The notes under the pieces are model-generated. The model ran no database searches and was not told where the DNA came from. It was given only the letters and a program-made list of their open reading frames with translations. From Alteromonas pelagimontana (GTDB lineage: Bacteria > Pseudomonadota > Gammaproteobacteria > Enterobacterales > Alteromonadaceae), in NCBI RefSeq assembly GCF_002499975.2, contig NZ_CP052766.1, positions 3,224,001-3,288,000 on the forward strand: DNA of 64,000 bases, given 5' to 3'. The stretch's first letter is position 1, and each line of letters starts with the position of its first letter. Below are positions 1,465 through 16,183 of the stretch, one piece after another. Made by a program: the position numbers and the translations under genes.

Positions 1465-1465
1465 C

Positions 1466-4400
1466 ATGCTAAAAAACATTCACCTGCATGTAGATTCTGA
1501 TGAATTTCGGCAGCATGCACTTGAACAGCAAGCTGCTAAGGAAATCGATCAACGGCAGCGTGAAAACCTTAACGCGATTCAGCGCTATATGCCAAACATC
1601 CGGAACTATTTACTTGCTGATAAAAGCAGTAGTGTGTCGGTGTTGTGTAATAAGCATGGCGAGCTTAATATCGTTGATTATCAGTCGGGGAGAGTTTTAT
1701 ACGGTGAACATCCGTATGAAGAAGCGCAAGAGCAGGTGAGATACTTCGCTGAATATCCTTTGCGAGTGGAGCTTAGTCCTCTTTCCAATGGTGAGGAGCC
1801 GGCACTGCGACCTTTTCTTGATGGCCTTCAAAGCACAGCAGCGGAAACATACCGGAAAAGCCAGCCTTTACCTGACAAAATTAACGTAATGGTTGTACTA
1901 GGGTTCGGCTTGGGTTTCCACGTGGAGCAGTTAATACAGAGTTTTCAGATTAATCACCTGATCGTCTACGAACCCAATATAGCCTATATCCGCTGTTCTA
2001 TAAGCGCAATGCAATGGAAGCAAACGTTAGAGCTGGCGAAAAAGAAAAATACCGGCCTTTATCTGCAAATCGGTAAAGACGGCAGTGAATTGGCGGCACA
2101 CATTGAAGAGCTTGCGGCTAACGTACCTATATCAGATTTTTATCTGTTCCAGCATTATCCTCAAGAGGTTTTTAATGAGGTAAGTGAAAAGCTGGCAACT
2201 GAGAACTGGGAGATGTTTAAGCGCTGGGATCCCGGTTCAAGAAAAACACTCCCAAATGAAAACTATTTAAGTGCATGGCAATCTCCAACAGACCACACAC
2301 AATGGTCGGCAGAACATCTCAACCTAGAGCAATTTACAGCCAACTTAGAAGCTTTAAAAAAATATTTTCCCGCTATACACCAACAATTCAAGGATTATCA
2401 ACCGGCCCATTGGACGCCTCTGGCAAATACTTCAGGTGAAGTAAACGTTTTTCATAAAGAAACGCTAATGCCACTATATGGATCAAGTCCCATTGAAGAC
2501 TGTTTGAAAAGCTTTGAAGACTTTGCCGAACAACCTAACAAAGATAGCTTAATTCTAAGCTACGCAGGGAAAAAGCTTAACCCTTACCTTCATTATCAGT
2601 TTGTGGAAAAGATTCAACCAGTGCTCGAGGAAATTGAGGAATATAAAGGGGAGTTGTTAGCAACAATTAAGTCTATGATTATTTTTGGTATGGGCGCCGG
2701 TTATCAATTACCTTATATATTCGAAAAATATAAAGTTGAAAAATTATTTATTTGTGAACCGAACAAAGATTATTTCTACGCATCTCTGTTTGCAATCGAT
2801 TGGGCAAAAGTTCTCCAGATAGTTGACGAAACAGATGCACGCATTTATCTGGATATAGGGGACGATGGAAGTAACCTCGTGGGCGACTTGCTGTCGCAGT
2901 TTCACGCAGTTGGCCCATATATCCTTGCCAGTACATACTTCTATCAAGGCTATTATAACGTAGCGCTAATTCGTGCCATTGCAGAACTGCGCGAGCAACT
3001 TCAGGTAATAATCGCCATGGGAGATTACTTCGACCATTCGCGATACTGTATCACTCACACCACTTGGGCGCTGGAGAATAAGATTCCGTTTTTGGTTAGA
3101 AACGCGTCTGATTTTTTGTCGGCCGAAATGAAAGATACACCAGTATTTATTGTGGGCAACGGTCCTTCTTTAGACAGTTTACTGCCATTAATTAAAGAAC
3201 ACGAAGAACAGGTGATCGTTGTATCCTGCGGTACAGCACTGCAGAGCCTCCACCGACACGGGATTACCCCGGATTTTCATGCTGAAATTGAGATTAACCG
3301 ATCCACTTTCGATTGGGCGGCTCGAGTGGGCGATTTTAGCTATCTAAAAAATATCAGTTTAATCAGCTGCAATGGAGTACATCCAGATGCTTGTAACTTA
3401 TACCGCGATACGTTTCTTGCGTTTAAAGAAGGAGAATCGGCTAGTATTAGTATTGCCAGAATATTTCCTGAGCATAAGTGGGCAATGTTAGGTAAATCTT
3501 ACCCCACGGTTACAAATTTTGCCGCTGATTTTATCACCACCATTGGTTTTAGACAGATCTATTTGTGTGGGGTGGATATGGGATTTGTTAATACCGGTCA
3601 CCACCATTCAAAATCTTCAGGATACTATAAGGACGATGGTGAGCAGCTTTACGATTATTCCGAGGACAACGACGTTTCAATTTTGGTGGAAGGGAATCTT
3701 CGCGATAAAGTTTATACAAAATTTGAGTTCAAGATTGCCAAACGCATGATGGAGCAAGCCATAGAAGGAAGGTGCGAAGTCTATAATCCAAACGACGGGG
3801 CTAAAATCGCTGGAGCACAGCCGCTGTATCCCGAAGATGTGTTTGTGGTCAATAATCCTCAAATTAAGCGCAATTGTCTTCGATTGTTAAAGACGCATTG
3901 CTTTAAATATTTTGATAAAGAAAGTATAAATCATGTCAAAAACACATACCAGCACAGCGCTCTGTCTAAAGAACTTGATGAGCTTAACGAATTAGTTGCC
4001 GCTGAGGTGACCTCAACTGATGAAGCAGCAGCGTTAATTGAAAAGCAGCGCGATTTGCTCTTGGACTCTTTTAGGTATAACAAAAGCTTAATATTTTACT
4101 ATTTTAATGGGACCGTGAATTACATTAATAGCGCGTTTATGCGAGCTTTATCAGTAAAAAATGATGAATCTCGTGTAGCAATATTTAATCAACTCCATAA
4201 TAAATGGCGTGCTACATTAGCAGAAATGACGGTTTCGCTTAACTATGATATAGACAGTTTTGATTTTATCTCTAGCTTTGCTTCCGAACGTCGAAAATTT
4301 TTTTATCCTCGTTACCTTGAAAAATTAGGCTATAAGTACGAAATATTGCCTGAGGAAAAGATGTTTCTTTTACCTTTTTCTGGTCCCGGGAGAATTCCGC

Positions 4401-4945
4401 TTCCTGCGCTAAATGCAGATTTATTTAGATTTATTTTTGTTTCGAAAAGTAATATTAATACTTTAAATTTGGAACAAGATAATCAAGTATTTATATTTAA
4501 ATGTTTTGACTTGCTGAGAGAGAGCTATGATATGTTCTCCACTAAACGAGTGTTGTTTCTACCGGGAAATTTTATGGACGAAAATTGCCCTTTCTCTAAT
4601 AATGACTTGCATCGGGTGAACATTGCTATCCTGGCCTCTACCTTTAACTTTGCAGAATTTATTATAATACCGAAAATTATGATTGATCCGAAGCTGCAAT
4701 GTGTTGAGGATTTTTTTGACCTCAGTTGGATATCGTCGTTCTATATATATGATGGTTTTGAATTCATTCTGTTGAAAAAAACTAGGCTTATAACGAGTGA
4801 GAAAATGATCGGGACGGGAGATAGACTATCTTTTATGACAGAAGTTACCGCTTTAGACTTGATATTTCGGGAAATTACTATGGAAGAGCAGAGAGCCAAT
4901 AAAGAAGCTCTATTGAAACGCTGTCCTGAATTAGGTAAAAGATGA
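1466..4945 (+). CDS. maf: Motility accessory factor Maf, giant flagellin glycosyltransferase with duplicated N-terminal unit
   Basis: Maf proteins transfer nonulosonic acids from CMP-sugars to Ser/Thr of flagellin in the cytoplasm. I use ATG 1466, one base after the upstream stop, giving 1159 residues; a longer in-frame start at 1412 would overlap the fliT-like gene. The MptE-like core (DUF115) is clear near residues 545-790, with FIVGNGPSLDSLLPLI at about 561-576. Ahead of it a Rossmann-like N-terminal unit occurs twice (about 30-250 and 290-515). The pairs are VVLGFGLGF / IIFGMGAGY, VYEPN / ICEPN and LYLQIGKDGSEL / IYLDIGDDGSNL. The stop overlaps pseB by four bases (ATGA), placing it as first gene of the pseudaminic acid operon and supporting Pse as donor sugar. 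Confidence 0.9.
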   Translation: MLKNIHLHVDSDEFRQHALEQQAAKEIDQRQRENLNAIQRYMPNIRNYLLADKSSSVSVLCNKHGELNIVDYQSGRVLYGEHPYEEAQEQVRYFAEYPLRVELSPLSNGEEPALRPFLDGLQSTAAETYRKSQPLPDKINVMVVLGFGLGFHVEQLIQSFQINHLIVYEPNIAYIRCSISAMQWKQTLELAKKKNTGLYLQIGKDGSELAAHIEELAANVPISDFYLFQHYPQEVFNEVSEKLATENWEMFKRWDPGSRKTLPNENYLSAWQSPTDHTQWSAEHLNLEQFTANLEALKKYFPAIHQQFKDYQPAHWTPLANTSGEVNVFHKETLMPLYGSSPIEDCLKSFEDFAEQPNKDSLILSYAGKKLNPYLHYQFVEKIQPVLEEIEEYKGELLATIKSMIIFGMGAGYQLPYIFEKYKVEKLFICEPNKDYFYASLFAIDWAKVLQIVDETDARIYLDIGDDGSNLVGDLLSQFHAVGPYILASTYFYQGYYNVALIRAIAELREQLQVIIAMGDYFDHSRYCITHTTWALENKIPFLVRNASDFLSAEMKDTPVFIVGNGPSLDSLLPLIKEHEEQVIVVSCGTALQSLHRHGITPDFHAEIEINRSTFDWAARVGDFSYLKNISLISCNGVHPDACNLYRDTFLAFKEGESASISIARIFPEHKWAMLGKSYPTVTNFAADFITTIGFRQIYLCGVDMGFVNTGHHHSKSSGYYKDDGEQLYDYSEDNDVSILVEGNLRDKVYTKFEFKIAKRMMEQAIEGRCEVYNPNDGAKIAGAQPLYPEDVFVVNNPQIKRNCLRLLKTHCFKYFDKESINHVKNTYQHSALSKELDELNELVAAEVTSTDEAAALIEKQRDLLLDSFRYNKSLIFYYFNGTVNYINSAFMRALSVKNDESRVAIFNQLHNKWRATLAEMTVSLNYDIDSFDFISSFASERRKFFYPRYLEKLGYKYEILPEEKMFLLPFSGPGRIPLPALNADLFRFIFVSKSNINTLNLEQDNQVFIFKCFDLLRESYDMFSTKRVLFLPGNFMDENCPFSNNDLHRVNIAILASTFNFAEFIIIPKIMIDPKLQCVEDFFDLSWISSFYIYDGFEFILLKKTRLITSEKMIGTGDRLSFMTEVTALDLIFREITMEEQRANKEALLKRCPELGKR

Positions 4946-5946
4946 GTCAGTTTAACGAAAAGTCGATATTAATCACAGGTGGAACGGGTTCTTTTGGTAA
5001 GAGGTTCGTTTCGTATTTACTCGAAAGTGCCGAGCCCAGAAAGATCATAATCTATTCTCGCGATGAACTAAAACAATTTGAAATGCAGCAGCGATTCGAC
5101 GCGCCCTGTATGCGTTACTTTATTGGTGATGTGCGGGATAAGGATCGTTTGATTACCGCAATGAAAGATGTCGATCTGGTGGTTCATGCCGCTGCCCTAA
5201 AGCAAGTTCCTGCTGCTGAATACAACCCCAATGAATGTATAAAAACGAACATTAATGGCGCCCAAAACGTTATTGATGCGGCCATTGCTAGCAACGTGTT
5301 GCGGGTGATAGCGTTATCTACCGACAAAGCAGCGAATCCGGTTAACCTTTACGGTGCCACCAAGTTGGCGTCAGATAAACTCTTTGTAGCAGCAAATAAC
5401 ATTTCCGGCGCAAAGGGTCCGCGTTTTTCAGTAGTGCGGTATGGCAATGTAGTTGGATCTCGTGGTTCTGTGGTGCCATTTTACCGTCATTTGCTAGCAC
5501 AGGGTAAAAAGTTATTGCCGGTGACTCATCCTGAGATGACACGGTTCTGGATTACACTGGATGAAGGTGTGGAGTTTGTTGTAAAGAACTTTTCTCGGAT
5601 GCAGGGAGGAGAGATCTTTGTGCCCAAAATTCCTTCTATTCGAATTGTTGATTTAGTGGAAGCTATGAGCGGCCAGCGCGAGTATGAGACTGTTGGTATT
5701 CGCCCTGGGGAAAAGCTTCATGAACTTATGGTGCCCGAGGAAATGGCTCACCATTCTATTGAGTTTGACAATCATTATGTCATTGCGCCAGCCATTACGT
5801 TTTTCGATAAAAATGTCGACTATATGAAGAACCGGCTAGGCGAGGAAGGGCATGCAGTCTCAGAAAAATTTGAATACCACTCCGGGAAAAACCCCCACTT
5901 TCTAACAGTTGAAGAATTAAAGGAATTGGACAAGCTAACTGCATGA
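4942..5946 (+). CDS. pseB: UDP-N-acetylglucosamine 4,6-dehydratase (inverting), PseB
   Basis: PseB is step one of pseudaminic acid synthesis. It removes water from UDP-GlcNAc and inverts C5, giving UDP-2-acetamido-2,6-dideoxy-beta-L-arabino-hexos-4-ulose. The 334-residue product is an extended short-chain dehydrogenase. The NADP-binding motif TGGTGSFG is at 12-19, the STDKA catalytic segment near 126-130 (Asp128, Lys129), and the YxxxK pair is Tyr137/Lys141 in LYGATKLASDK. The start overlaps the maf stop (ATGA) and its own stop overlaps pseC (ATGA). A close retaining homologue (FlaA1-like for other sugars) is possible, but the full Pse gene set around it makes PseB the best call. Confidence 0.93.
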   Translation: MSQFNEKSILITGGTGSFGKRFVSYLLESAEPRKIIIYSRDELKQFEMQQRFDAPCMRYFIGDVRDKDRLITAMKDVDLVVHAAALKQVPAAEYNPNECIKTNINGAQNVIDAAIASNVLRVIALSTDKAANPVNLYGATKLASDKLFVAANNISGAKGPRFSVVRYGNVVGSRGSVVPFYRHLLAQGKKLLPVTHPEMTRFWITLDEGVEFVVKNFSRMQGGEIFVPKIPSIRIVDLVEAMSGQREYETVGIRPGEKLHELMVPEEMAHHSIEFDNHYVIAPAITFFDKNVDYMKNRLGEEGHAVSEKFEYHSGKNPHFLTVEELKELDKLTA

Positions 5947-7088
5947 TCCCTTACGGCAAGCACAACATTGATGATGCCGATATTGCCGCCGTTGTCGATG
6001 TTTTAAAAAACGAATTTCTTACGCAGGGAAAGCAGGTTCCAGCGTTTGAAAGAGCGCTCTGTGAGTATACAGGAGCAAGTCATGCAGTGGCTGTAAACAG
6101 TGGGACGTCTGGTTTACACATTGCGTGTCTTGCCGCTGGCATTGAAGCTGGCGATATTGTCTGGACAGTACCTAACTCTTTTGCTGCGTCTGCGAACTGT
6201 GCGCTTTACTGCGGAGCATCGGTCGATTTTGTTGATATTGATCCGGATACCCGTAATTTGAGCCCGGCGTTACTACAAGAAAAGCTTCATCATGCAGCAA
6301 AGCAGAAAGCTCTGCCTAAAGCATTGGTAGTGGTGCATTTTGCTGGCAGCAGTTGTGATATGCGTCAGATTGCCGACATAGTCAAACCTTATAATATCAC
6401 TCTAATTGAAGATGGTGCGCATGCACTAGGCGGTGAAGATTTCGATGGCAATAAAATTGGAGGGAGTAATTGTTCCTCCATGACGGTGTTGAGCTTTCAT
6501 CCAGTGAAATCGATTACCACAGCTGAGGGCGGGGCGGTACTTACCAATCACGCAGACCTGGCGCAGAAGCTCAGACTTTATGCCAGTCATGGTATTACCC
6601 GTGAGAAAGAGCTTCTTCCAGCAGGTCACTCTGACGAAGCCTGGTATTACGCGCAGCAGTGTCTGGGCTATAACTATCGCTTGAGCGACCTTCATGCCGC
6701 GCTCGGATTAGCGCAGCTAAAGCGCCTGGACAGCTTTATTCACGCTCGTAGGAAAAAAGCAGAGTATTATCACAAGGCGCTGGCTGAACTTCCCGTTATT
6801 CGGCCTCCGGGCAATATCCGAAGCGCATGGCACTTGTACGTTATCGAGTTACTGCATCATGATAGAAAGCAGGTATTTGAAGCTTTGCGAAATGCAGGCA
6901 TTGGTGTAAATGTGCATTATATTCCTATTCACTGGCATCCTTATTATCAAAAACTCGGTTTTGCTCAGGGCCAGTACCCAGCAAGCGAAAAATATTATCA
7001 ACGAGCTATTACGCTACCTTTATATGCTGAACTTACGGCCGATATGCAAGATGAGGTTATTCGCCAGTTAAAAGAGGTGCTAATGTGA
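5943..7088 (+). CDS. pseC: UDP-4-amino-4,6-dideoxy-N-acetyl-beta-L-altrosamine transaminase, PseC
   Basis: PseC uses PLP and glutamate to aminate C4 of the PseB product. The 381 residues match the DegT/DnrJ/EryC1 aminotransferase family. The signature VNSGTSGLHIA is near 51-61, IEDGAHALGG near 155-164, and the PLP-binding lysine is Lys189 in LSFHPVKSITTAEGG. The gene overlaps pseB and pseF by four bases on each side, so it is internal to a tightly coupled operon. The order B-C-F-I-G-H found here is a common arrangement in Gammaproteobacteria. Confidence 0.93.
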   Translation: MIPYGKHNIDDADIAAVVDVLKNEFLTQGKQVPAFERALCEYTGASHAVAVNSGTSGLHIACLAAGIEAGDIVWTVPNSFAASANCALYCGASVDFVDIDPDTRNLSPALLQEKLHHAAKQKALPKALVVVHFAGSSCDMRQIADIVKPYNITLIEDGAHALGGEDFDGNKIGGSNCSSMTVLSFHPVKSITTAEGGAVLTNHADLAQKLRLYASHGITREKELLPAGHSDEAWYYAQQCLGYNYRLSDLHAALGLAQLKRLDSFIHARRKKAEYYHKALAELPVIRPPGNIRSAWHLYVIELLHHDRKQVFEALRNAGIGVNVHYIPIHWHPYYQKLGFAQGQYPASEKYYQRAITLPLYAELTADMQDEVIRQLKEVLM

Positions 7089-7777
7089 GAATAGCTGTTA
7101 TACCCGCTCGGGGCGGCAGTAAACGTATCCCCGGCAAAAACATAAGAGATTTCGCTGGAAAGCCTTTGATTGCTTATTCTCTGGCGGCTGCTAAAAAAAG
7201 TGAGCTTTTTGATGAAATTATCGTTACCACTGATTCTCAGGAAATCGCCGATATCGCCCAATCCTTTGGTGCTTCATATATTATAAAGCGGCCGGAGTCG
7301 TTATCTAATGATTTGGTAGGTACCTTTCCAGTAGTTCAGCATGCTATTAGCCATTACCAGTCTCACGTGCGTGCGGTAGATTACGTCTGCTGCATTTATG
7401 CCACTGCGCCTTTTCTACGTGCTGATAAATTGCAGGAAGGCTGCTCACGGCTAAGTCATGATCTTTCGAAGCATTTTGCTTTTTCTGTAACCTCCTTCGC
7501 CTTTCCCATCCAGCGCGCTATTCGATTGGCTGGTGAAGGAGTAGAGCCGTTGGATGAAAGTAAAATGGGTATGCGTTCTCAGGATTTGGAAGAGTGTTAC
7601 CACGACGCCGGGCAGTTTTACTGGGGCACCACCCACGGTTGGCTCAGTAATCAGCCCATGTTTGCGCCTCACAGTGTACCGATTATTTTGCCTCGTTATC
7701 TGGTGCAGGACATAGACACACCAGAGGATTGGCAGCGCGCTGAGCTTATGTACAGAGCTTACGTAGCGATTCCCTGA
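7085..7777 (+). CDS. pseF: CMP-pseudaminic acid cytidylyltransferase, PseF
   Basis: PseF activates pseudaminic acid with CTP to give CMP-Pse, the donor used by Maf. The 230-residue protein begins IAVIPARGGSKRIPGKNIR, the nucleotide-binding signature of the CMP-NeuAc synthetase family. Later family features are YVCCIYATAPFLR and a C-terminal VQDIDTPEDWQ. The start is a GTG sharing four bases with the pseC stop. It is followed by a 120-base break before pseI, the only sizeable gap in this part of the operon. Confidence 0.92.
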   Translation: MRIAVIPARGGSKRIPGKNIRDFAGKPLIAYSLAAAKKSELFDEIIVTTDSQEIADIAQSFGASYIIKRPESLSNDLVGTFPVVQHAISHYQSHVRAVDYVCCIYATAPFLRADKLQEGCSRLSHDLSKHFAFSVTSFAFPIQRAIRLAGEGVEPLDESKMGMRSQDLEECYHDAGQFYWGTTHGWLSNQPMFAPHSVPIILPRYLVQDIDTPEDWQRAELMYRAYVAIP

Positions 7778-7778
7778 T

Positions 7779-7897: not shown

Positions 7898-8953
7898 ATG
7901 CGTAGTGTACAAATAGCAGGGCGGACCATTGGTCCTGAAGAACCTCCTTTTGTGATTGCAGAGCTTAGTGGCAATCACAGCCAGAACTTGTCGCTTGCGC
8001 TGGCGATGGTTGAAGCTGCGGCTAAAAGCGGTGCTCATGCTATTAAGCTGCAAACGTATACCGCTGACAGTATGACTTTAGACGTTCAAAGCAGCGATTT
8101 TGTGATCAACGAAAAAGACAGCCTGTGGTATGGAGCATCGCTACATTCGCTGTACGCTAAAGCTGCTACGCCTTATGAATGGCATGAACAGCTGTTCAAA
8201 CGCGCAGAAGAGTTGGGAATGATAGCGTTTAGTTCTCCCTTTGATAACGACGCTGTTGATTTTTTAGATGAATTAAACGTCCCCTGTTTCAAAATTGCCT
8301 CTTTTGAGCTAAACGATTTACCGCTGATTGCTTATGCTGCGGGTAAAGGTAAGCCTCTGATAATGTCTACGGGAATGGCATCCCTGCGGGATATCGAACT
8401 GGCAGTAGAATGTGCAAGAGATGCTGGGTGCGATGATATTGTTTTACTCAAATGCACCAGCACCTATCCCGCCAACCCCGGCAATACGAATTTGGCCACC
8501 ATTCCCAATATGAGGGAAGCGTTCGGGTGTCAGGTGGGACTGAGTGATCATACCGGTGGAATAGGAGTCGCTGTCGCTGCTGTCGCCTTTGGCGCTACTG
8601 TAATTGAAAAGCATTTTGTGCTGGACCGCAATGCCGGTGGCGTCGATGCCGCCTTTTCACTTGAGCCCGACGAAATGCATTCTTTGGTGACAGAAACAGA
8701 AAGAGCCTGGCAGGGAATCGGCAAGGTTCGGTACGGCGGCACCCATGCCGAGGAAGCTGCTAAGCAATATCGACGTTCCATTTACGTCAGCGAAGATATA
8801 CCGGCAGGGGAAGTGCTGACAGCCGCTAATTTAAAGATTGTACGACCTGCATTTGGATTGGCACCACGGCATTGGTCGACCGTGCTCGGAAAAAGGGCAA
8901 ATCATGACATTCGTAAAGGCACGCCCTTAAAGTGGGAGCACATGAAGCCGTGA
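7898..8953 (+). CDS. pseI: Pseudaminic acid synthase, PseI
   Basis: PseI condenses 2,4-diacetamido-2,4,6-trideoxy-L-altrose with phosphoenolpyruvate to give the nine-carbon pseudaminic acid. The 351 residues show the NeuB-family TIM barrel beginning with VIAELSGNHSQNLSLA (about 19-34) and AIKLQTYTADSMTLD. The C-terminal SAF/antifreeze-like domain starts near YRRSIYVSEDIPAGE. The AELSGNH form is typical of PseI rather than of NeuB or LegI. A good Shine-Dalgarno (TAAGGAGA) lies about seven bases before the ATG, as expected for a gene that is not overlapped by its predecessor. The stop overlaps the pseG start. Confidence 0.93.
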   Translation: MRSVQIAGRTIGPEEPPFVIAELSGNHSQNLSLALAMVEAAAKSGAHAIKLQTYTADSMTLDVQSSDFVINEKDSLWYGASLHSLYAKAATPYEWHEQLFKRAEELGMIAFSSPFDNDAVDFLDELNVPCFKIASFELNDLPLIAYAAGKGKPLIMSTGMASLRDIELAVECARDAGCDDIVLLKCTSTYPANPGNTNLATIPNMREAFGCQVGLSDHTGGIGVAVAAVAFGATVIEKHFVLDRNAGGVDAAFSLEPDEMHSLVTETERAWQGIGKVRYGGTHAEEAAKQYRRSIYVSEDIPAGEVLTAANLKIVRPAFGLAPRHWSTVLGKRANHDIRKGTPLKWEHMKP

Positions 8954-9975
8954 GACCACTGGTTTTTCGAGTAGAAGCTTCTACACAATCTGGTCTCGGT
9001 CATTTAATGCGATGCTTGGCTATTGCTCAGGCTGCAGAAGACCAATCGATCCCAAGCATTTTCTTGCTAAGTGAAGAAGGTAAAGTCCTGGCAAGAGCTA
9101 GGCATGACTGGACGTACGATGTTATATCAGTACCGATTTTTGAAAGTCAGCACGAAGAAGGCAGTTGGATTCGCGAAATACTTAATGCTGTAAACGCATC
9201 AGCGTTGATTGTCGATGGTTACTCATTTACATCTGAGCTCTTGGTACCCATACGGAACTGTGAGACTAGCGTGGTTGTGCTGGATGACGGAAGTAACGCA
9301 TTAACGGCTTTTGCAGACATTGTAATTAACCCGGCAACGCGTGAATACGATGAGTTGTATCTGCAGAGCCAGGCATCGCTCCGCTTATGCACCGGCGATA
9401 AATATCGCTTGTTGCGCAGAGAGTTTCAGGTTTTATCACTGCCTTCGATAGAGGCGCGCCACGGAATAGCGGTCAATCTGGGCGGCAGCGATCCAATGAG
9501 CTTGACGCTGCCTGTATTACAACTACTACAACAAACGCTTCCCGAGGTGCCGGTGAGGGTTGTTACAGGCGCCGGCTATAGAAATCTACCAGCGCTGGAA
9601 CGATTTATTGCGCAATCGCCTTTGGCAGTTCAGCATATTCACAACTGCCAGAACATGGCTGACGTATGGTCCCACGCACGCGTTGCAATTAGTGCTGCGG
9701 GAGGAAGCCAGTTCGAGTTAGCCGTGTGCCAAACACCGTCACTATTGTTGATGGTGGCAGAGAACCAGCGCGGGGCAACAAACCTTGCACGTTCGCAAGG
9801 CTGGTGTGAGTTTTTTGATTGCACAACAGAGTTTCCGGAACCGCGGTTATCCAGTGCGTTAACTGAGTTATTCTTCAATGAACACCGACTTAAGGAAATG
9901 TCGGCCAAGGCCAGCAAGCTTCATGATGCGCTAGGCGCTATTCGTGTGCTTGAAGTGATAAGCGAAGCATTGTAA
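8950..9975 (+). CDS. pseG: UDP-2,4-diacetamido-2,4,6-trideoxy-beta-L-altropyranose hydrolase, PseG
   Basis: PseG releases UDP from the doubly acetylated altrose before the PseI condensation. I prefer the GTG at 8950, which overlaps the pseI stop as GTGA in the style of the whole operon; a GTG 18 bases upstream is also in frame. That gives 341 residues. The GT-B-like MurG fold is shown by the N-terminal ASTQSGLGHLMRCLAIA, with the catalytic-type His at about 18, by VNLGGSDP in the middle, and by SAAGGSQFELAVCQTPSLLL in the nucleotide-binding half. The stop shares its last base with the pseH ATG. Confidence 0.91.
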   Translation: MRPLVFRVEASTQSGLGHLMRCLAIAQAAEDQSIPSIFLLSEEGKVLARARHDWTYDVISVPIFESQHEEGSWIREILNAVNASALIVDGYSFTSELLVPIRNCETSVVVLDDGSNALTAFADIVINPATREYDELYLQSQASLRLCTGDKYRLLRREFQVLSLPSIEARHGIAVNLGGSDPMSLTLPVLQLLQQTLPEVPVRVVTGAGYRNLPALERFIAQSPLAVQHIHNCQNMADVWSHARVAISAAGGSQFELAVCQTPSLLLMVAENQRGATNLARSQGWCEFFDCTTEFPEPRLSSALTELFFNEHRLKEMSAKASKLHDALGAIRVLEVISEAL

Positions 9976-10553
9976 TGATAACTATCAAACAGCAACAGAA
10001 GGACTTTTATATTACTGGTTACTCCGTGCACCTTCGTCCTGTTGTTTACAGTGATCTTGAGCAACTGCGAGAGTGGCGTAACTCTGCGTTTGTAAGCAAG
10101 CAAATGCTGGATTCTCAATATATAAGTGCTGAGCAGCAAGCAGCGTGGTTTATGAAAGTTAGCCGGGATGATTCTCAGTACCACTGGATTGTGGAATATC
10201 AGGGCCATTGTATCGGCTCTACAAATATAAAAGCGCGTCATGTCGGTGAGCGCGTACATACAGCAAAAGAACTGGAACCCGGGCTTTATATCGGTGATCC
10301 CGATTATCAGGGCAACATCCTGGCTTTTGCGCCTACTCTTGCGATGTATGATTTTTGTTTTAACGAGCTGCAAACTCAGTCGTTTCATGCGGTGGTAAAG
10401 GCCACCAATCAGGCTGCAATCAAATATAATCAACAACTAGGATATGAAATCGTCAGTCAGCAAAAATTACTTGAACTCAGCTTGCAAAAAGAGGCCTACG
10501 AGCGGCAAACTGTTATGCTTAAGCGATTGCTGTCTCGAACGCGCCAGTCTTAG
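9975..10553 (+). CDS. pseH: UDP-4-amino-4,6-dideoxy-N-acetyl-beta-L-altrosamine N-acetyltransferase, PseH
   Basis: PseH is the GNAT acetyltransferase that adds the second acetyl group (N-4 of the UDP-sugar). The 192-residue protein has the PseH-type start VHLRPVVYSDLEQLREWRN and the late GNAT motif VKATNQAAIKYNQQLGY, where the acyl-CoA pyrophosphate loop and substrate residues lie. With PseB, C, F, G and I this completes the CMP-Pse pathway within six consecutive genes. The acyl-carrier module begins 17 bases downstream. If PseH or a later enzyme accepts a non-acetyl acyl donor, this would be the point of contact; that is inference. Confidence 0.88.
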   Translation: MITIKQQQKDFYITGYSVHLRPVVYSDLEQLREWRNSAFVSKQMLDSQYISAEQQAAWFMKVSRDDSQYHWIVEYQGHCIGSTNIKARHVGERVHTAKELEPGLYIGDPDYQGNILAFAPTLAMYDFCFNELQTQSFHAVVKATNQAAIKYNQQLGYEIVSQQKLLELSLQKEAYERQTVMLKRLLSRTRQS

Positions 10554-10570: not shown

Positions 10571-10810
10571 GTGAACAATCAACAGAAATTAGTGGATGCT
10601 TTTTGCGAGGCATTAGGTGTTGCACCTGATATGGTAACTGATGACCTGACCTATAATACCATCAAAGAGTGGGATTCAACGGCACACATGATTCTAATTG
10701 CCGAACTGGAAAATACCTTCGATGTCATGCTAGACACTGACGATATCATTGATATGAGTTCAGTGGGAAAAGCAAAATCGATATTAAGCAAATATGACAT
10801 TGGGTTCTGA
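10571..10810 (+). CDS. Acyl carrier protein
   Basis: A 79-residue acidic protein with the phosphopantetheine attachment motif EWDSTAHM, Ser36 being the modified residue (the general ACP motif is DSxxH/L). It resembles the specialised ACPs of sugar-decoration clusters more than the fatty-acid AcpP, whose motif reads DSLDTVEL. The start is GTG after GAAGAGG. Its end overlaps the reductase gene by 17 bases, so the two are probably co-translated. In context it should carry the acyl chain handled by the next four enzymes. Confidence 0.88.
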   Translation: MNNQQKLVDAFCEALGVAPDMVTDDLTYNTIKEWDSTAHMILIAELENTFDVMLDTDDIIDMSSVGKAKSILSKYDIGF

Positions 10811-11558
10811 TGCCCCTCTAAAAGGGAAGTCGGTGTTAGTCACCGGCGCCACAGGCGGGCTGGGGCAGGCTATTGTTTCTCGTTGTCTGGCGGGTGGTGC
10901 GACTGTGTTTGCTGGCGGCAGAAACGAGGCGAAGCTTACTCAATTGGCTAAAAGCTGGGGCGAAAAAGTAGTGCCACTGATTTATGATGTGACTGACGAA
11001 AGAGCCGTTAAAGAAACTTTCCGGCAAATTCAGAAACAACAGATGCAGACTGGTATTGGCCCCCTTTGGGGCATGGTTAACAATGCTGGTTTGATGTTTG
11101 AAGCGCCTCTTAGTATCAGTAGCCTCGATAAGTTTAAGGAGCAGTTAAACGTGAATCTGCTCGCGCCGTACCAGCATATGCAATTGGCCGCCAGGCTTAT
11201 GTCTCGTCAGCGCAAAGGCAGTATTGTGAATATTGTGTCTCAGGTGGGGGAGCACGGAAGCAGCGGCATGAGCGCTTACGCCGCAACAAAAGCGGCACTG
11301 ACTGGCGTAACTAAGTCGTTGGCAAAAGAACTGGCGCCCATCGGCATACGGGTGAATGCTGTCGCTCCAGGTTTTATTGATACTCACCTCACCGAACATT
11401 ACGAAGAACACGCAAGGGAAGCGGTAGTCTCGCGTATTGCATTTCAACGTGCCGGAATGGCGAGCGAAGTAGCCAATGCTGTTTTTTACTTACTAAGCGA
11501 TCAGGCAAGCTATACCTCAGGGCACGTTCTGCCTGTCGACGGTATTTTTTCACCGTGA
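10794..11558 (+). CDS. FabG-like 3-oxoacyl-ACP reductase (short-chain dehydrogenase)
   Basis: This is a classical short-chain dehydrogenase of 254 residues. The NAD(P) motif TGATGGLG is at 17-24, NNAG at 96-99, catalytic Ser at about 149 and Tyr162/Lys166 in AYAATKAALTG. The C-terminal part reads INAVAPGFIDT-like (RVNAVAPGFIDTHL) and ends VDGIF, the usual FabG pattern. It lies between an ACP and an AMP-forming ligase, which suggests reduction of an ACP-bound 3-oxo group to a hydroxyl. A sugar or other small-molecule substrate cannot be excluded from sequence alone. Confidence 0.82.
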   Translation: MTLGSDAPLKGKSVLVTGATGGLGQAIVSRCLAGGATVFAGGRNEAKLTQLAKSWGEKVVPLIYDVTDERAVKETFRQIQKQQMQTGIGPLWGMVNNAGLMFEAPLSISSLDKFKEQLNVNLLAPYQHMQLAARLMSRQRKGSIVNIVSQVGEHGSSGMSAYAATKAALTGVTKSLAKELAPIGIRVNAVAPGFIDTHLTEHYEEHAREAVVSRIAFQRAGMASEVANAVFYLLSDQASYTSGHVLPVDGIFSP

Positions 11559-12949
11559 CCACAATGTTATGTGTTGTCGATAATTTAGAGCAACATGCTG
11601 CAAACAAACGCATTGCTTTAAAGGATGATACCAGCAGCGTTACCTATTGTGAACTTCTGCGGCGGATAGAGCATCGCAGGGAACAATGGCGTCAGCATTT
11701 GCGCAACGAGTTGGCGCGACCACTGGTCATGCTGTTTATGGATAATACTATCGACAGCGTAGTAAATTACCTGACCTGTCTGCGGTTTCGTCTTCCGGTG
11801 TTAGTCATCAATACCAAACTTCAGGAAACTGCAAAAAAAGATTTTATTCAGCGTTTTAATCCTCATTTAATAGTCGAGGAAAATACGGTTCAGGCATCTG
11901 CGTCTCAGCCCCTGTCGTTGCACCCCGAATTGGCACTGCTTATGGCTACTTCCGGCTCAACGGGAAGCGGAAAATGCGTGGCATTGTCTTATCGTAATTT
12001 ACACGTAAACACGGAGTCGATTCTTACGTATCTTCCCATACGTAGCGATGACCGGACCTTAGCTACTTTACCCTTTTCCTATTCCTACGGGCTTTCGGTA
12101 CTTCACTCCCATTTAGCCTGTGGAGCCACCATTGCTATGACTACGTTGACCGTAATGGAAAGAGAATTTTGGCGATTGTTGCAGTCTTTGCCGGTGACCT
12201 CTTTATCCGGTGTGCCACATTGGTATGAAATGTTGATACGCTTGCGTTTTACCCGACAGGAATTGCCTTCTTTACGTTATTTTACGCAAGCTGGTGGGCG
12301 GTTAGACCCCGACGTGTCTCAACAACTCGCTGACTACGCAAAGACACATAATAAGCAGTTTTTTGTCATGTACGGGCAGACGGAAGCTACCGCAAGAATT
12401 GCCTTTCTTGACGCTGACAAGGTTAGGGACAAGCCAACTTCTGTCGGGCAGGCAATTCCCGGCGGTGAGTTGGAGCTGCGCTCTCTTTCTGGCGACCGGA
12501 TTAGCACAGCATATACCGAAGGAGAGTTATACTATCGAGGGGAAAATACCATGCTGGGTTATGTCGAGACTTCGAGGGAACTGGCTGCGTTTGTACCGAA
12601 AGAATGGCTCGCTACCGGCGATCTTGCCGAATTCGATAGCGAAGGCGATTTTTACATTACCGGTCGCACTAAACGCATTGCGAAGCTTTTTGGCGAGCGA
12701 GTCAACCTTGATGAATTGGAAAGACAGTTTGCCCAAGTCGGTTTATCCGTAAGATGCTGCGGCGAAGAAAATGTTATTGCTGCTTTTTGTCTTGCTACCG
12801 ACAAAGAACTTGTTAAGAAATATTTCGATCAAATACTGACAGCACCACCAAAATCTCGTCGTCTTGTCACTCTAGAGGCCTGGCCTTTGTTAGCTAATGA
12901 GAAAATTGATTATGGTATGCTAAACGTGATGCTGAAACAGGCGCTTTAG
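11555..12949 (+). CDS. AMP-forming acyl ligase (ANL superfamily)
   Basis: A 464-residue adenylate-forming enzyme that would activate a carboxylic acid with ATP and pass it to CoA or to the neighbouring ACP. The phosphate loop TSGSTGSGK lies at 132-140, YGQTEATAR near 273-281, and ATGDLAEFDSEGDFYITGR carries the A7-A8 elements. Lysine in NEKIDYGML near the end is the likely A10 residue. It is shorter than typical acyl-CoA synthetases (500-600 residues). The GTG start shares four bases with the reductase stop. The acyl substrate is not predictable by eye. Confidence 0.83.
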   Translation: MTTMLCVVDNLEQHAANKRIALKDDTSSVTYCELLRRIEHRREQWRQHLRNELARPLVMLFMDNTIDSVVNYLTCLRFRLPVLVINTKLQETAKKDFIQRFNPHLIVEENTVQASASQPLSLHPELALLMATSGSTGSGKCVALSYRNLHVNTESILTYLPIRSDDRTLATLPFSYSYGLSVLHSHLACGATIAMTTLTVMEREFWRLLQSLPVTSLSGVPHWYEMLIRLRFTRQELPSLRYFTQAGGRLDPDVSQQLADYAKTHNKQFFVMYGQTEATARIAFLDADKVRDKPTSVGQAIPGGELELRSLSGDRISTAYTEGELYYRGENTMLGYVETSRELAAFVPKEWLATGDLAEFDSEGDFYITGRTKRIAKLFGERVNLDELERQFAQVGLSVRCCGEENVIAAFCLATDKELVKKYFDQILTAPPKSRRLVTLEAWPLLANEKIDYGMLNVMLKQAL

Positions 12950-12951
12950 TT

Positions 12952-14046
12952 ATGGCAGGTAACACATTAGACACTTACCTGACGCAGTACGAGTCACTGC
13001 TAAATCACGGGCTTTTCACAAAACCTCAAGTTGAAAAACAAAAGAAGCTTACGGCTTTAATGCATACGCTGCATGTTCATCATCAGCAACAATGTTTACC
13101 TTATCGCAAGCTGTTCCCCAACGAGCTGGGACCTCTGACGAATTATGCCGATTTTCCCTATCTGGCGGTAAGACTTTTCAAAGTAATGCAATTACAGAGT
13201 ATTGCCGATCATGAGATTTTCCGAACGCTCTTGTCTTCCGGCACTACCGGTCAAACACCGGCCAAAGTTGTGCTTGATAGCCTTACCAGCGCCCGCCAAA
13301 GCAAAGCATTAGTGAAGATAATGCAGGAGTTTATCGGGAAAGCGCGCTTGCCAATGCTCATTGTGGACTCACCGCAGGTACTAAAAAATCCCGCCTTCTC
13401 GGCGCGGGCTGCGGGGGTTCAGGGAATGGCATTTTTCGGCAGAAAGCCTGTTTATGCTTTACGCGAAGATATGTCGTTAGATGTTGAAGCAGTTAAAGCC
13501 TTTGCAGAAGACAATGTGGGGCAACCCGTTCTGATTTTTGGCTTTACCTTTATGGTGTGGTTACATTTCGTTCAAGCTTTAGAGGATCGCGTAATTCGTC
13601 TGCCGTTGGAGCAAGGCATCGTCATCCACAGCGGAGGCTGGAAAAAACTCGCTGATAAGCAGGTAAATAATGCCACCTTCAAAGCCGGTCTAAAAGCAAC
13701 TTGTGGTATTGCCAAAGTACATAACTTTTACGGTATGGCGGAACAAGTGGGAAGCGTATTCGTAGAATGTGAAAAGGGTCATCTTCACGCGCCATCGGTC
13801 GCTGATATTGTAATTCGTAATCCTTATACACTGGCGGAATCTGCCTGTGGAGAAGAAGGACTAATTCAGGTAATTTCAGCCCTGCCTACCAGTTATCCAG
13901 GTTACAGTATTTTGACGGAAGATTTAGGTCGAATGTTAGGGGAAGATAATTGCCTCTGTGGGCGCTTAGGTCGCCATTTTGAAGTGACGCGGCGTCTACC
14001 GAAAACCGAGATCAGAGGTTGTAGCGATACCGGGAGCCGGGAATGA
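12952..14046 (+). CDS. LuxE-like acyl-protein synthetase
   Basis: LuxE-family enzymes adenylate a fatty acid and pass it, as a thioester, to the partner reductase LuxC. The product is 364 residues, close to the family's usual length. The segment LLSSGTTGQTPAKVVLD at about 93-109 is the characteristic phosphate-binding stretch, and HNFYGMAEQVGSVFVEC in the second half matches the motif before the LuxE C-terminus. It is directly followed by a luxC-like gene with a four-base overlap, the pairing seen in lux operons. luxA, luxB and luxD are absent, so bioluminescence is unlikely. Confidence 0.82.
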   Translation: MAGNTLDTYLTQYESLLNHGLFTKPQVEKQKKLTALMHTLHVHHQQQCLPYRKLFPNELGPLTNYADFPYLAVRLFKVMQLQSIADHEIFRTLLSSGTTGQTPAKVVLDSLTSARQSKALVKIMQEFIGKARLPMLIVDSPQVLKNPAFSARAAGVQGMAFFGRKPVYALREDMSLDVEAVKAFAEDNVGQPVLIFGFTFMVWLHFVQALEDRVIRLPLEQGIVIHSGGWKKLADKQVNNATFKAGLKATCGIAKVHNFYGMAEQVGSVFVECEKGHLHAPSVADIVIRNPYTLAESACGEEGLIQVISALPTSYPGYSILTEDLGRMLGEDNCLCGRLGRHFEVTRRLPKTEIRGCSDTGSRE

Positions 14047-15230
14047 CCATCACGCAACTTGCACCAGTGAAAGAAAAGAGCATCAGCACCGATTTGACTG
14101 CGCTGTCGGCGTTACGCGCGCCACTACTAGCGGTGGGTGATGAGCGTATTTTTGCTTTTACCGATGCGCTTTCTGCAGTCCTGCTGAAAGAGCCTCGTTT
14201 TCGAGATTATAGCGAGCTAGTGGCTCTGGGGTTTTGGCTGCGACGGGCCAATTTATCACGTTATCTACAGCAACTACAGGACGCTTTTTACAAGCCTTTA
14301 GGATTGGTAGTGCATTACACGCCGGCAAATGTGGACACCATGTTCATCTATAGCTGGATTTGCGCGTTGATAATGGGAAACAGGAATATTGTTCGTGTTG
14401 CCAGCCAGTTAAGCAATTTGCAGCAGGCACTCATTGATTGCGTAAACCTGTTGTTCAAGCAAGAGCAACATCAGTCTATTGCGCTGGCAAATAATTTTAT
14501 TCAGTTCGATAAGGCGCAGAGCGTCGGGGAGTCTTTAAGTCTTGAAGCAGATGCCAGAGTGCTTTGGGGCGGGGATGACAGCGTGAGCGCCATTCGTCAT
14601 TTACCCTCTCGTCCACGCTGCAGAGATATCAGCTTTGCGGACAGATATTCTGCCACCATTATTGCTCAAAGCGGGATAAATGAAGGCAATCGCAGAAGTG
14701 TTGCACAGCGAGTATGGCGAGACATGAACACCTTTGATCAGCAAGCGTGCTCCTCGCCCAGGTTACTGTTTTGGTGTGGGGATGAAATTGGATTAGTCAG
14801 GCAACTGGAAACGCTAGGCAATGTGGCGTCAGATACTGCCTTTACAGAGTTTCATCGTAATGAACAACTGGTGTTTAGTCAATGGCAACAGGCTGAGGGG
14901 AACGTTCAGCAAGCGATACAGGCTGGGCCAATTTGCGCTGTGATACAAGACCCTAAAGCACCCTCTATAATACAAATTCACCCAGGACAGCAAATATTGG
15001 TCTGTTATGTAATCAATGAGCTTGAGGAACTCGTTGCTCTGGTTGACAACAAGTTGCAGACGCTAAGCTATTTTGGCTTTGAAAAAGAAGCATTTTTTAA
15101 GTTTTTGAAAGAGTCGCCGATACAGGGGATAGACAGAATCGTTCCAGTCGGCGAAGCGTTGGCATTTTCTCCTGAATGGGACGGATACGATCTTTTGACT
15201 CAGCTAGCCAGGCGAGTGGTATTTAAATGA
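14043..15230 (+). CDS. LuxC-like acyl-CoA/acyl-protein reductase
   Basis: LuxC reduces an activated acyl group to an aldehyde with NADPH. The 395-residue product is shorter than luminous-bacterium LuxC (about 480), mainly at the N-terminus. It keeps the cofactor-side segment reading MGNRNIVRVASQLS, the ISFADRYSATIIAQ stretch, and the catalytic cysteine in FDQQACSSPRLLFWCG (Cys236). With the preceding LuxE-like protein it should form an acid reductase. Here it lies in a flagellin-glycan operon, where an aldehyde (or after further reduction an alcohol, or by transamination an amine) could be the decoration precursor; that is inference. Confidence 0.82.
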   Translation: MTITQLAPVKEKSISTDLTALSALRAPLLAVGDERIFAFTDALSAVLLKEPRFRDYSELVALGFWLRRANLSRYLQQLQDAFYKPLGLVVHYTPANVDTMFIYSWICALIMGNRNIVRVASQLSNLQQALIDCVNLLFKQEQHQSIALANNFIQFDKAQSVGESLSLEADARVLWGGDDSVSAIRHLPSRPRCRDISFADRYSATIIAQSGINEGNRRSVAQRVWRDMNTFDQQACSSPRLLFWCGDEIGLVRQLETLGNVASDTAFTEFHRNEQLVFSQWQQAEGNVQQAIQAGPICAVIQDPKAPSIIQIHPGQQILVCYVINELEELVALVDNKLQTLSYFGFEKEAFFKFLKESPIQGIDRIVPVGEALAFSPEWDGYDLLTQLARRVVFK

Positions 15231-16183
15231 AGCTTTCAGTTATCGTTCCGGCGTACAACCTTGAAAACTATATAGTTGAATGTTTGTTGTCTGTTTTACA
15301 CCAGGAAGTAAATTTTCCGTTTGAAGTTATTGCGTGTGACGATGCCTCTACAGACAGCACAGCAAGTGCTATTCGTTCTCTTGCCGTTGATTACCCACAG
15401 CTAAAAACCATTGTTAAGCCCAAAAATGAAGGGCTGGCTGCGAACATGCGAACCTTGCTTCAGTCGGTGAAGGGAGAGTATATCGCTTATTTGGATGGCG
15501 ACGATATTGCGTTACCCGGTAAATTGCAAGCGCAGGTAAATTACCTCGACAGCCATCCCGGCTGCGAAATGGTATTTCACGAATCCGATGTGTTTGATTC
15601 AGCCACCGGACAATCCCTTCGTCTGTATTCTCAATCCTTTTACAACTGGACCTACATTCCAACAGAATCGAATATAGAGCATCTGGTTCGTTACGGGACT
15701 TATATGCAGGCCAGCAGTGTAATGTTTCGCAACCATTCTAATTTAGATAATACTATTGCTCGTGACTGTAAAATAATTCTGGATTATCCCTTTTACGTAT
15801 TGAACGCGGGCTATCTTAACGCCAATATCCATTTTATCGGCGAAGTATTAGGACGTTACCGTATCCACGAGCATAGTTTTGGCGCCCAAACGCAACGAAG
15901 TGTAGCGCGGCGAGAGCAAGCGCTGCAGGATATGATAATGACGTGCCAGATGGCGCTGCAGTTTTGTAAGTCTGAGGAAGTGGTTCAAAGCGGTATCTCT
16001 CACCATCAGTATGCGGCAGCACTCTATTTTTTATTTAAAGATAACGATGAACGCTTCCATCACTGGATAACGGCTTCCGCTTCTGGGGCAGGTTTTTTTA
16101 ACAAAAAACACAAGTTAGCTTGGGACCTTCGGGATTCGCCTGCAGCTCTGAAAGACGCGCTACGTAACGGAGTGCATCTGTGA
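15227..16183 (+). CDS. Family 2 glycosyltransferase
   Basis: An inverting GT-A glycosyltransferase of 318 residues. The N-terminus SVIVPAYNLENYIVECL and the CDDASTDSTASA loop bind the nucleotide sugar, and the metal-binding DXD lies in YLDGDDIA (Asp90-Asp93). There are no membrane segments. It overlaps the luxC-like gene and glf by four bases each, so it belongs to the same transcription unit. Likely it extends the Pse-linked glycan or modifies it; donor and acceptor are unknown. Confidence 0.85.
   Translation: MKLSVIVPAYNLENYIVECLLSVLHQEVNFPFEVIACDDASTDSTASAIRSLAVDYPQLKTIVKPKNEGLAANMRTLLQSVKGEYIAYLDGDDIALPGKLQAQVNYLDSHPGCEMVFHESDVFDSATGQSLRLYSQSFYNWTYIPTESNIEHLVRYGTYMQASSVMFRNHSNLDNTIARDCKIILDYPFYVLNAGYLNANIHFIGEVLGRYRIHEHSFGAQTQRSVARREQALQDMIMTCQMALQFCKSEEVVQSGISHHQYAAALYFLFKDNDERFHHWITASASGAGFFNKKHKLAWDLRDSPAALKDALRNGVHL

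What the first reader, a model, noticed from the sequence alone, without database searches (positions are those of the whole stretch)
10571..15230. Five-gene acyl activation and reduction module embedded in a pseudaminic acid flagellin-glycosylation operon
An acyl carrier protein, FabG-like reductase, AMP-forming ligase, LuxE-like synthetase and LuxC-like reductase follow pseH with mostly overlapping ends. The Lux pair normally makes fatty aldehyde for luciferase, yet there is no luxA, luxB or luxD. The chain or aldehyde made here is probably attached to the Pse sugar (for example by PseH or a later enzyme), which would mean a lipid-like or hydroxyacyl decoration on flagella. I have a vague memory of lux-like genes in other flagellar glycosylation islands, so novelty is uncertain.
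Basis: partly seen in the sequence, partly recalled or inferred. Interest (0 to 1): 0.75.

Follow-up and report, generated by a model that had tools for sequence, protein, structure and literature searches.

The report
Short-acyl supply module for flagellar sugar
Five genes resembling bacterial light-production genes sit in a flagellin-sugar operon and most likely make a small hydroxy-acid group, like the one on the cholera O1 antigen, that the neighbouring enzyme PseH attaches to the flagellar sugar pseudaminic acid.

Summary
The five genes are real and tightly packed: ACP (10571-10810), SDR, AMP-ligase, LuxE-like, LuxC-like, between pseH and a GT2 gene. The same order is in print for Aeromonas group II flagellin islands (PMC7874193), and similar genes for enterobacterial ones (PMC4875605), read there as fatty-acid/"liposugar" genes. 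I propose another reading. A comparable set (VC0248-VC0252: ligase, alcohol dehydrogenase, LuxE-LuxC reductase, acetyltransferase; ACP recalled) is assigned to tetronate, the C4 dihydroxy-acid on Vibrio cholerae O1 perosamine. A PseH lineage travels with the module: 55 of 56 module PseHs fall on one side of a 100/100 branch, all 32 controls on the other, and its CoA-loop and general-acid columns are changed. In several loci without PseH a hexapeptide acyltransferase sits in its place. Replacing one N-acetyl of pseudaminic acid by C4H6O3 gives 376.148 Da, matching the uncharacterised 376.14-Da sugar of A. piscicola AH-3; its unknown 102-Da moiety also equals C4H6O3 nominally. A long fatty chain does not fit 376 Da. 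The acid itself, the ACP-dependence of PseH and the mass in the window's own organism are untested.

The parts
1412..4945 (+). Maf-type flagellin glycosyltransferase (Maf_flag10_N, MptE-like)
   Evidence: Pfam PF20157 386 bits, PF01973 104 bits
4942..5946 (+). pseB
   Evidence: TIGR03589 553.9 bits, cut-off 408
5943..7088 (+). pseC aminotransferase
   Evidence: TIGR03588 514.1 bits, cut-off 423.5
7085..7777 (+). pseF
   Evidence: TIGR03584 311.9 bits, cut-off 206
7898..8953 (+). pseI, pseudaminic acid synthase
   Evidence: TIGR03586 491.7 bits, cut-off 340
8932..9975 (+). pseG
   Evidence: TIGR03590 186.3 bits, cut-off 153.6
9975..10553 (+). pseH-like GNAT acyltransferase of the module-linked lineage; proposed transferase of the ACP-bound acyl group
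   Evidence: TIGR03585 61 bits, below the 93 cut-off; AlphaFold mean pLDDT 92.7, 4ri1 PseH among top PDB matches; own clade 100/100
10571..10810 (+). acyl carrier protein, attachment serine in WDSTAH
   Evidence: PF00550 25.4 bits; full frame; WDS in 100 of 100 loci with an ACP
10794..11558 (+). SDR reductase, FabG-like; proposed aldehyde-to-alcohol step
   Evidence: PF00106 174.8 bits; YxxxK present
11555..12949 (+). AMP-forming ligase, proposed acid:ACP ligase
   Evidence: PF00501 145.4 bits; SGSTG and TGD motifs
12952..14046 (+). LuxE-like acyl-protein synthetase
   Evidence: PF04443 168.4 bits; Cys357 in RGCSD aligned with 7xc6 LuxE
14043..15230 (+). LuxC-like acyl thioester reductase
   Evidence: PF05893 103.6 bits; Cys236 in QQACSSP aligned with 7xc6 LuxC
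15227..16183 (+). GT2 glycosyltransferase in the position of Aeromonas Fgi-1, which adds the first sugar to the Pse derivative
   Evidence: PF00535 100.8 bits; 301-338 bits to the gene after luxC in Aeromonas-type loci L015-L017
16180..17346 (+). UDP-galactopyranose mutase (Glf), also next in Aeromonas loci
   Evidence: TIGR00031 431 bits, cut-off 304; 443-453 bits in L015-L017

Best explanation
[quoted passage not shown] The product is a pseudaminic acid with one N-acetyl replaced by C4H6O3 (residue 376.148 Da), which Maf then links to flagellin. Proposed route: LuxE activates one carboxyl of a small dicarboxylic acid (malate is the favoured guess) and passes it through its cysteine to LuxC; LuxC reduces it to the semialdehyde; the SDR reduces that to the alcohol; the ligase loads the remaining carboxyl onto the ACP; PseH transfers it. 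Shown: gene content, conserved catalytic residues, linkage, the separate PseH lineage, the mass arithmetic. Inferred: order of steps, the substrate, ACP as donor, and that the window's organism makes the same group as Aeromonas.
For: 1) Known counterpart: V. cholerae VC0248-VC0252 are the assigned tetronate genes of the O1 antigen, with VC0249 RfbL, VC0250 Fe-alcohol dehydrogenase, VC0251 'acyl protein synthase/acyl-CoA reductase RfbN', VC0252 acetyltransferase; deleting wbeL (VC0249) removes the O1 antigen. The same kind of set (ACP 77 aa, ligase 473, Fe-ADH 374, LuxE-LuxC fusion 825 aa) sits in a NeuB/C/D-type locus, L041. Window proteins match it: LuxE 34%, ligase 24% over 455, LuxC 23% over 325, ACP 39% over 51. 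2) PseH travels with the module: 55 of 56 module PseHs form one side of a 100/100 branch, 32 controls outside; on quick trees the label needs 2 changes on PseH but 5 on PseI. 3) PseH active-site shift: G.G or [RQ]..G.[GA] in the CoA loop in 1 of 62 ACP-adjacent GNAT domains against 21 of 35 control domains; Asn at the column of the general-acid Tyr in 53 of 62 against 0 of 35. 4) In five loci without PseH a hexapeptide acyltransferase sits directly before the ACP (L023, L099, L122, L155, L166). 5) Mass: 376.148 computed against 376.14 reported for AH-3, kept after deletion of fgi-1; the unknown 102-Da moiety also equals C4H6O3 nominally, and the whole glycan computes to 1491.49 against 1491.5.
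Against: The window has an SDR where the tetronate set has an iron alcohol dehydrogenase, and 5 of 58 Pse-type loci lack the SDR. 376.148 fixes only a composition (C15H24N2O9): an O-methylglyceroyl group, a hydroxybutyryl on an extra-hydroxylated backbone, or Pse5Ac7Ac9Ac plus water would weigh the same. The AH-1 strain, placed among the small islands without this module, has a 403-Da sugar whose figure legend also marks a '376 Da sugar' (section 5 read; the figure is not held): if 376 occurs without the module, the mass argument falls. The tetronate assignment in V. cholerae rests, in what I read, on homology and wbeL genetics, not on enzyme assays. Control PseHs are themselves varied at the loop and the Tyr column (7 of 35 have Tyr). 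No V. cholerae O1 locus could be fetched for direct comparison. The ligase, LuxC and ACP similarities are remote. SDR and ligase would also suit acetoacetate to 3-hydroxybutyryl-ACP.
Confidence: 0.55

Rival explanations
1. Fatty-acyl or fatty-aldehyde 'liposugar': the genes make a medium or long chain that lipidates the flagellar glycan, as suggested in print and by the first reader.
For: LuxE/LuxC act on fatty acids in bioluminescence; PMC7874193 and PMC4875605 propose a liposugar.
Against: No ketosynthase, dehydratase, enoyl reductase or thioesterase is among the module genes of the window. The 376-Da sugar of AH-3 has no room for a long acyl on Pse. LuxE/LuxC are far below the fatty-acid equivalog cut-offs.
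Confidence: 0.12
2. Another short acyl is made: 4-hydroxybutyryl (from succinate), 3-hydroxybutyryl (from acetoacetate), or a C5-C6 acid, still on ACP and still moved by PseH. The Aeromonas mass may then not apply to the window's organism.
For: The enzyme set does not fix the acid. FdhC, a GNAT that is in my recollection a 3-hydroxybutanoyl transferase for an amino sugar, is among the PDB relatives of module PseH. In loci without adjacent pseH 21 of 47 carry TPP enzymes against 1 of 58 with it, so acyl products may differ between contexts.
Against: 4- or 3-hydroxybutyryl would give 360.15, not the 376.14 seen in AH-3. 3-Hydroxybutyryl needs no LuxE/LuxC.
Confidence: 0.2
3. The module acts on the outer glycan rather than on Pse: its product is the terminal 102-Da unit on a later sugar, moved by another enzyme, while 376 has a different cause.
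For: The 102-Da moiety is lost with fgi-1 and equals C4H6O3 nominally. The group II gene set goes with extended glycans. AH-1 may show a 376-Da species without the module.
Against: pseH, not an outer transferase, is the conserved neighbour and has its own lineage. The 376-Da sugar is found alone on the lateral flagellin of AH-3.
Confidence: 0.13

Closest known systems
Aeromonas group II polar flagellin glycosylation island (orf1-orf2-orf3-luxE-luxC, fgi-1; PMC7874193)
   Same: Same five genes in the same order after pseH and before a GT2 gene; maf and pse genes close by.
   Different: In the window pseB-C-F-I-G-H are contiguous, while pseBC and pseFGHI are apart in Aeromonas. The published reading is fatty-acid/liposugar; mine is a C4 hydroxyacyl.
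Vibrio cholerae O1 tetronate genes VC0248-VC0252 (rfb/wbe K-O)
   Same: Ligase, dehydrogenase and LuxE+LuxC-type reductase (the ACP as rfbK is recalled) with an acyltransferase, serving N-acylation of an amino sugar with a C4 dihydroxy acid.
   Different: LuxE and LuxC are one protein (by the name and the L041 counterpart); Fe-ADH instead of SDR; O-antigen perosamine instead of flagellar pseudaminic acid; VC0252 acetyltransferase not compared with PseH here.
Enterobacterial flagellin islands with Acp, LuxE, LuxC, CaiC, FabG (PMC4875605)
   Same: Same gene kinds in flagellin islands, 71 to 80 strains depending on the gene, by the passages read.
   Different: Several island types; backbone sugars vary; no product known.
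Bacterial bioluminescence fatty acid reductase LuxC/LuxE (PDB 7xc6)
   Same: Families and catalytic cysteines.
   Different: No luxA, luxB or luxD beside it; far below equivalog scores; adds ACP and an AMP-ligase.

Membership tests
Aeromonas group II FGI five-gene set | ACP, 3-oxoacyl-ACP-reductase-like, AMP-synthetase, luxE, luxC in order after pseH | tested here: met
Aeromonas group II FGI five-gene set | GT2 fgi-1 directly after luxC | tested here: met
   GT2 at 15227, 301-338 bits to the Aeromonas-type genes
Aeromonas group II FGI five-gene set | pseBC separated from pseFGHI by the transferase block | tested here: not met
   window pse genes contiguous 4942-10553
V. cholerae O1-type tetronate pathway | ligase and LuxE-LuxC reductase plus ACP | tested here: met
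   homology to the L041 set; V. cholerae genes themselves not fetched, so this is by proxy
V. cholerae O1-type tetronate pathway | iron-containing alcohol dehydrogenase | tested here: not met
   SDR in its place; Fe-ADH in V. cholerae
V. cholerae O1-type tetronate pathway | C4 dihydroxyacyl on an amino sugar | not testable with these tools
   only indirect: 376.148 computed against 376.14 reported in AH-3
LuxC/LuxE fatty acid reductase (bioluminescence) | catalytic cysteines of LuxE and LuxC | tested here: met
LuxC/LuxE fatty acid reductase (bioluminescence) | equivalog score | tested here: not met
   59 of 550 and 50.5 of 750 bits
LuxC/LuxE fatty acid reductase (bioluminescence) | luxAB and luxD in the genome | tested here: inconclusive
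   one general luciferase-like hit only; LuxD search without a working control
PseH (TIGR03585) | curated score cut-off | tested here: not met
   61.2 against 93.1 bits
PseH (TIGR03585) | GNAT fold of PseH and place in a pse operon | tested here: met
PseH (TIGR03585) | acetyl-CoA as donor | not testable with these tools
   the CoA-loop motif is present in only 1 of 62 ACP-adjacent domains; donor not assayed

The most novel reading that the evidence does not exclude
There is a separate, widespread lineage of PseH enzymes that has switched donor from acetyl-CoA to a dedicated acyl-ACP carrying a C4 dihydroxy acid made by a LuxE/LuxC route, so that flagella of many marine and aquatic bacteria carry a pseudaminic acid with the same acyl group as the cholera O1 antigen. 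The same core is reused with hexapeptide transferases, and with thiamine-diphosphate enzymes that may lengthen the aldehyde, giving a general system for custom acyl groups on bacterial amino sugars.
Probability: 0.37. Interest if true: 0.65.

Novelty: new variant of a known kind. Interest (0 to 1): 0.5.

Why it matters
The 376-Da flagellin sugar of Aeromonas is called only a 'pseudaminic acid derivative', and its 102-Da companion 'unknown', in the papers I could read, and the lux-like genes beside the pse genes were read as lipid genes. One acyl unit, C4H6O3, would explain both masses and the genes, and points to PseH as the enzyme to test. It would link flagellar nonulosonic acids to the tetronate chemistry of the cholera O1 antigen. 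It also gives a rule for predicting N-acyl groups from gene clusters: acyltransferase + ACP + ligase + LuxE + LuxC.

Tried and rejected
Fatty aldehyde or liposugar as product: judged unlikely on mass and on missing chain-elongation genes in the module. Counting FeADH hits in Pse loci as the replacement for SDR: rejected. The four loci (L093, L094, L123, L135) carry it, and all four share other gene families there (clusters 22, 23 and 27); three of the four have the SDR as well. Finding a V. cholerae O1 locus for a direct comparison: 7 of 227 genomes of that genus had a hit at E<=1e-40, and the 4-5.5 kb held around each shows none that I could recognise as an O1 locus. A tight general-acid argument: the Tyr column varies in controls too, so only the Asn excess is used. 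Clostridium Pse paper PMC13317340: the terms LuxE, acyl carrier, acyl-CoA and hydroxybut do not occur in its main text. Published link between tetronate or dihydroxybutyryl and pseudaminic acid or flagellin: searches (20 of 62 papers listed; 12 of 395; 20 of 25) show none. PMC6479008, the one listed row with tetronate, flagellin and luxC, was opened at those passages: it concerns V. cholerae O-antigen and a lux reporter. This covers open-licence papers only. Wilhelms 2012, Merino 2014 and Morona 1995 are not held; what is said of them comes from citing papers or recall.

Rows dropped before counts: 6 duplicate loci (L118, L125, L126, L129, L131, L140). L022 and L039 were left out of the trees, and only rows with PseI of at least 290 bits in the locus were kept. 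Two long-branch controls, N_L066 and N_L047, were dropped from the careful tree. Controls: 40 loci fetched out of 71 PseI-positive genomes without close LuxE; 35 GNAT domains were found in 34 of these 40 loci, none in the other 6, and a few may not be PseH. The 62 'ACP-adjacent' domains are those within 1.7 kb of an ACP and include a few that are not of the PseH lineage.

Full report
WHAT IS THERE. The window holds a contiguous flagellin-glycosylation operon: maf (1412), pseB, pseC, pseF, pseI, pseG, pseH (to 10553), then ACP 10571-10810, SDR 10794-11558, AMP-ligase 11555-12949, LuxE-like 12952-14046, LuxC-like 14043-15230, a GT2 gene and a UDP-galactopyranose mutase gene. PseB, C, F, I and G pass their NCBIfam cut-offs; PseH scores 61.2 against 93.1. 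All five module genes pass their Pfam cut-offs. Scores against the true luminescence models are low: 59 of 550 bits for LuxE and 50.5 of 750 for LuxC. The LuxE cysteine (RGCSD, Cys357) and the LuxC cysteine (QQACSSP, Cys236) align with those of the solved LuxC-LuxE complex 7xc6. Across 105 distinct related loci the expected residues are mostly kept: WDS in the ACP in 100 of 100, LuxE GC[ST] in 104 of 105 (the exception has GCG), YxxxK in the SDR in 88 of 88 but my strict nucleotide-loop pattern in only 79 of 88, ligase P-loop pattern in 99 of 103 and TGD in 102 of 103, and the LuxC cysteine motif in 97 of 100, the misses being two cut genes and one with ACSSS (a narrower LuxC pattern matched 75 of 100). 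LuxE occurs once in the 4.31-Mb genome.

ALREADY IN PRINT. PMC7874193 (passages and part 1 of the discussion read) describes the same five genes in the same order downstream of pseH in group II islands of 98 Aeromonas strains, with the GT2 gene fgi-1 after luxC in 97 of them. PMC4875605 (passages) reports such genes in 71 to 80 enterobacterial strains depending on the gene. Both suggest a lipid ('liposugar') component. Aeromonas loci fetched here (L114, L115, L118) show pseH-ACP-SDR-ligase-LuxE-LuxC-GT2-Glf, as in the window. So the gene set is not new; its meaning is open.

LINKAGE. In 247 genomes of the order, 34 have a LuxE relative at E<=1e-10 and 29 at E<=1e-90. Of those 29, 28 carry PseI over its cut-off, against 71 of the other 218 (Fisher p about 1e-11, not corrected for relatedness). 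In a class-wide sample 5 of 369 genomes have LuxE at E<=1e-10, the window's own included. Among 105 distinct loci (31 from genomes and 80 named, 6 duplicates removed; the window not counted), 58 have a PseH-like gene beside the ACP, 53 of them with the SDR and 54 with PseI in the stretch. Another 44 have neither an adjacent pseH nor a PseI of 290 bits or more; at least six of these (L022, L107, L119, L134, L143, L147) are on short pieces. So the module is strongly but not only linked to pse.

PSEH BELONGS TO THE MODULE. In a careful tree of 88 PseH domains, 55 of 56 module rows, the window included, lie on one side of a branch with support 100/100, and all 32 controls lie outside. The one exception is L146, from a Metasolibacillus record. 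Holding all 56 together is not rejected (AU p 0.249). In quick trees of 90 rows the module label needs 2 changes for PseH but 5 (at least 3 forced) for PseI from the same loci. So PseH is inherited with the module more than with the backbone gene PseI. At the active site, a canonical G.G or [RQ]..G.[GA] pattern in the CoA-pyrophosphate loop is found in 1 of 62 ACP-adjacent domains and in 21 of 35 control domains (with duplicates: 1 of 67; without). In H. pylori PseH this loop (Gly103) and Lys133 hold the CoA pyrophosphate, and Tyr138 is the putative general acid (PMC4363471, passages). At the column I take for that Tyr, ACP-adjacent domains have Asn in 53 of 62 and controls in 0 of 35, though only 7 of 35 controls have Tyr. 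The alignment in this region is gappy and the module rows are related, so these are consistent signs, not independent tests. The predicted window PseH is confident (pLDDT 92.7) and matches PseH and SpeG folds.

INTERCHANGEABLE ACYLTRANSFERASES. Where PseH is absent, a hexapeptide-type acyltransferase lies directly before the ACP in L023, L099, L122, L155 and L166, after LuxC in L132, and a GNAT directly before the ACP in L149. By similarity search, hexapeptide hits occur in 7 of 47 loci without adjacent pseH and 1 of 58 with it, so for most of the 47 I have not identified the acyltransferase. Ligase-LuxE (L014) and LuxE-LuxC (L029, L041) fusions occur, which ties these activities together. TPP enzymes (split transketolase or acetolactate-synthase-like; Pfam) occur in 21 of 47 loci without adjacent pseH against 1 of 58 with it. 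I read this as other uses of the LuxC aldehyde; that is inference.

THE TETRONATE COUNTERPART. The V. cholerae O1 antigen is perosamine acylated with 3-deoxy-L-glycero-tetronate, and VC0248-VC0252 are its assigned genes (PMC3441752, passages). VC0249 is RfbL, VC0250 an iron-containing alcohol dehydrogenase, VC0251 'acyl protein synthase/acyl-CoA reductase RfbN' and VC0252 an acetyltransferase (PMC9201469, one table passage). Deleting wbeL removes the O1 antigen. That VC0248 is an ACP, and that malate is the proposed precursor, I recall and did not read. L041 holds ACP, ligase (473 aa; WbeL is 471), Fe-ADH and an 825-aa LuxE-LuxC fusion beside NeuB, NeuC and NeuD. A V. vulnificus table lists RfbN near a NeuC homologue and an ACP (PMC11264103, one passage). 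The window's LuxE is 34% identical to that fusion, and the ligase, LuxC and ACP match it more weakly. The step that differs is the dehydrogenase: SDR against Fe-ADH.

MASS. The Pse5Ac7Ac residue is 316.127. With one N-acetyl replaced by C4H6O3 it is 376.148. PMC7874193 reports 376.14 Da for the AH-3 linking sugar, kept alone after fgi-1 deletion, and an unknown 102-Da moiety on the full glycan. The lateral flagellin carries the 376-Da sugar alone (PMC4284686, passage). C4H6O3 is 102.03. The full glycan with both units computes to 1491.49 against 1491.5 reported, and the fgi-1 glycopeptide to m/z 720.02 against 720.0; the wild-type m/z computes to 1091.8 against 1092.1. Within 0.06 Da ten other formulas appear in the enumeration, most chemically unlikely by my judgement, and 376.148 is also Pse5Ac7Ac9Ac plus water. 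Hydroxybutyryl would give 360.15, lauroyl 456.28. Strain AH-1, which PMC7874193 counts with the single-sugar islands, has a 403-Da sugar with a different proposed make-up; its figure legend also marks a '376 Da sugar', and I could not see the figure (section 5 read).

VERDICT. The reading of a decoration on Pse is supported, the lipid reading is not. Best account: a tetronate-like C4 hydroxyacyl-ACP pathway feeding a specialised PseH (confidence 0.55). Main weak points: remote homology to the tetronate enzymes, a missing SDR in 5 of 58 loci, composition rather than structure from the mass, the unclear AH-1 legend, and no data from the window's own organism.

Noticed in passing
window 23535-30116, minus strand: An antiparallel sugar cluster: DegT aminotransferase, a weak GH130 hit, hexapeptide acyltransferase, methyltransferase and WbqC.
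   Followed up: partly
window 32053-33531: FleQ-type sigma-54 flagellar regulator, so the island lies beside flagellar regulation genes.
   Followed up: no
L141, L154, L156, L158-L161, L163 and others: Split transketolase genes, or acetolactate-synthase-like genes in L035, L038, L137, L145, L148, L150-L152, lie beside LuxE/LuxC/ACP modules: 21 of 47 loci without adjacent pseH against 1 of 58 with it.
   Followed up: partly
L030, L032, L093, L095, L097: Pse-type modules without the SDR gene.
   Followed up: no
L014 9338-11971; L029 14098-16419; L041 8273-10750: Ligase-LuxE and LuxE-LuxC gene fusions.
   Followed up: partly
L133, L149, L151, L160, L163: A clustered family of about 234 aa near LuxE; the L151 member is a thioesterase by Pfam, perhaps editing the ACP.
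   Followed up: no
L013 3589-4560 and 15 other loci: A conserved protein of about 323 aa; the L013 member has no Pfam match and lies between pseF and pseI, as in L087.
   Followed up: no
Aeromonas-genus loci L016, L018, L019, L114, L115, L124 against L015, L017: Two quite different module PseH types within one genus.
   Followed up: no
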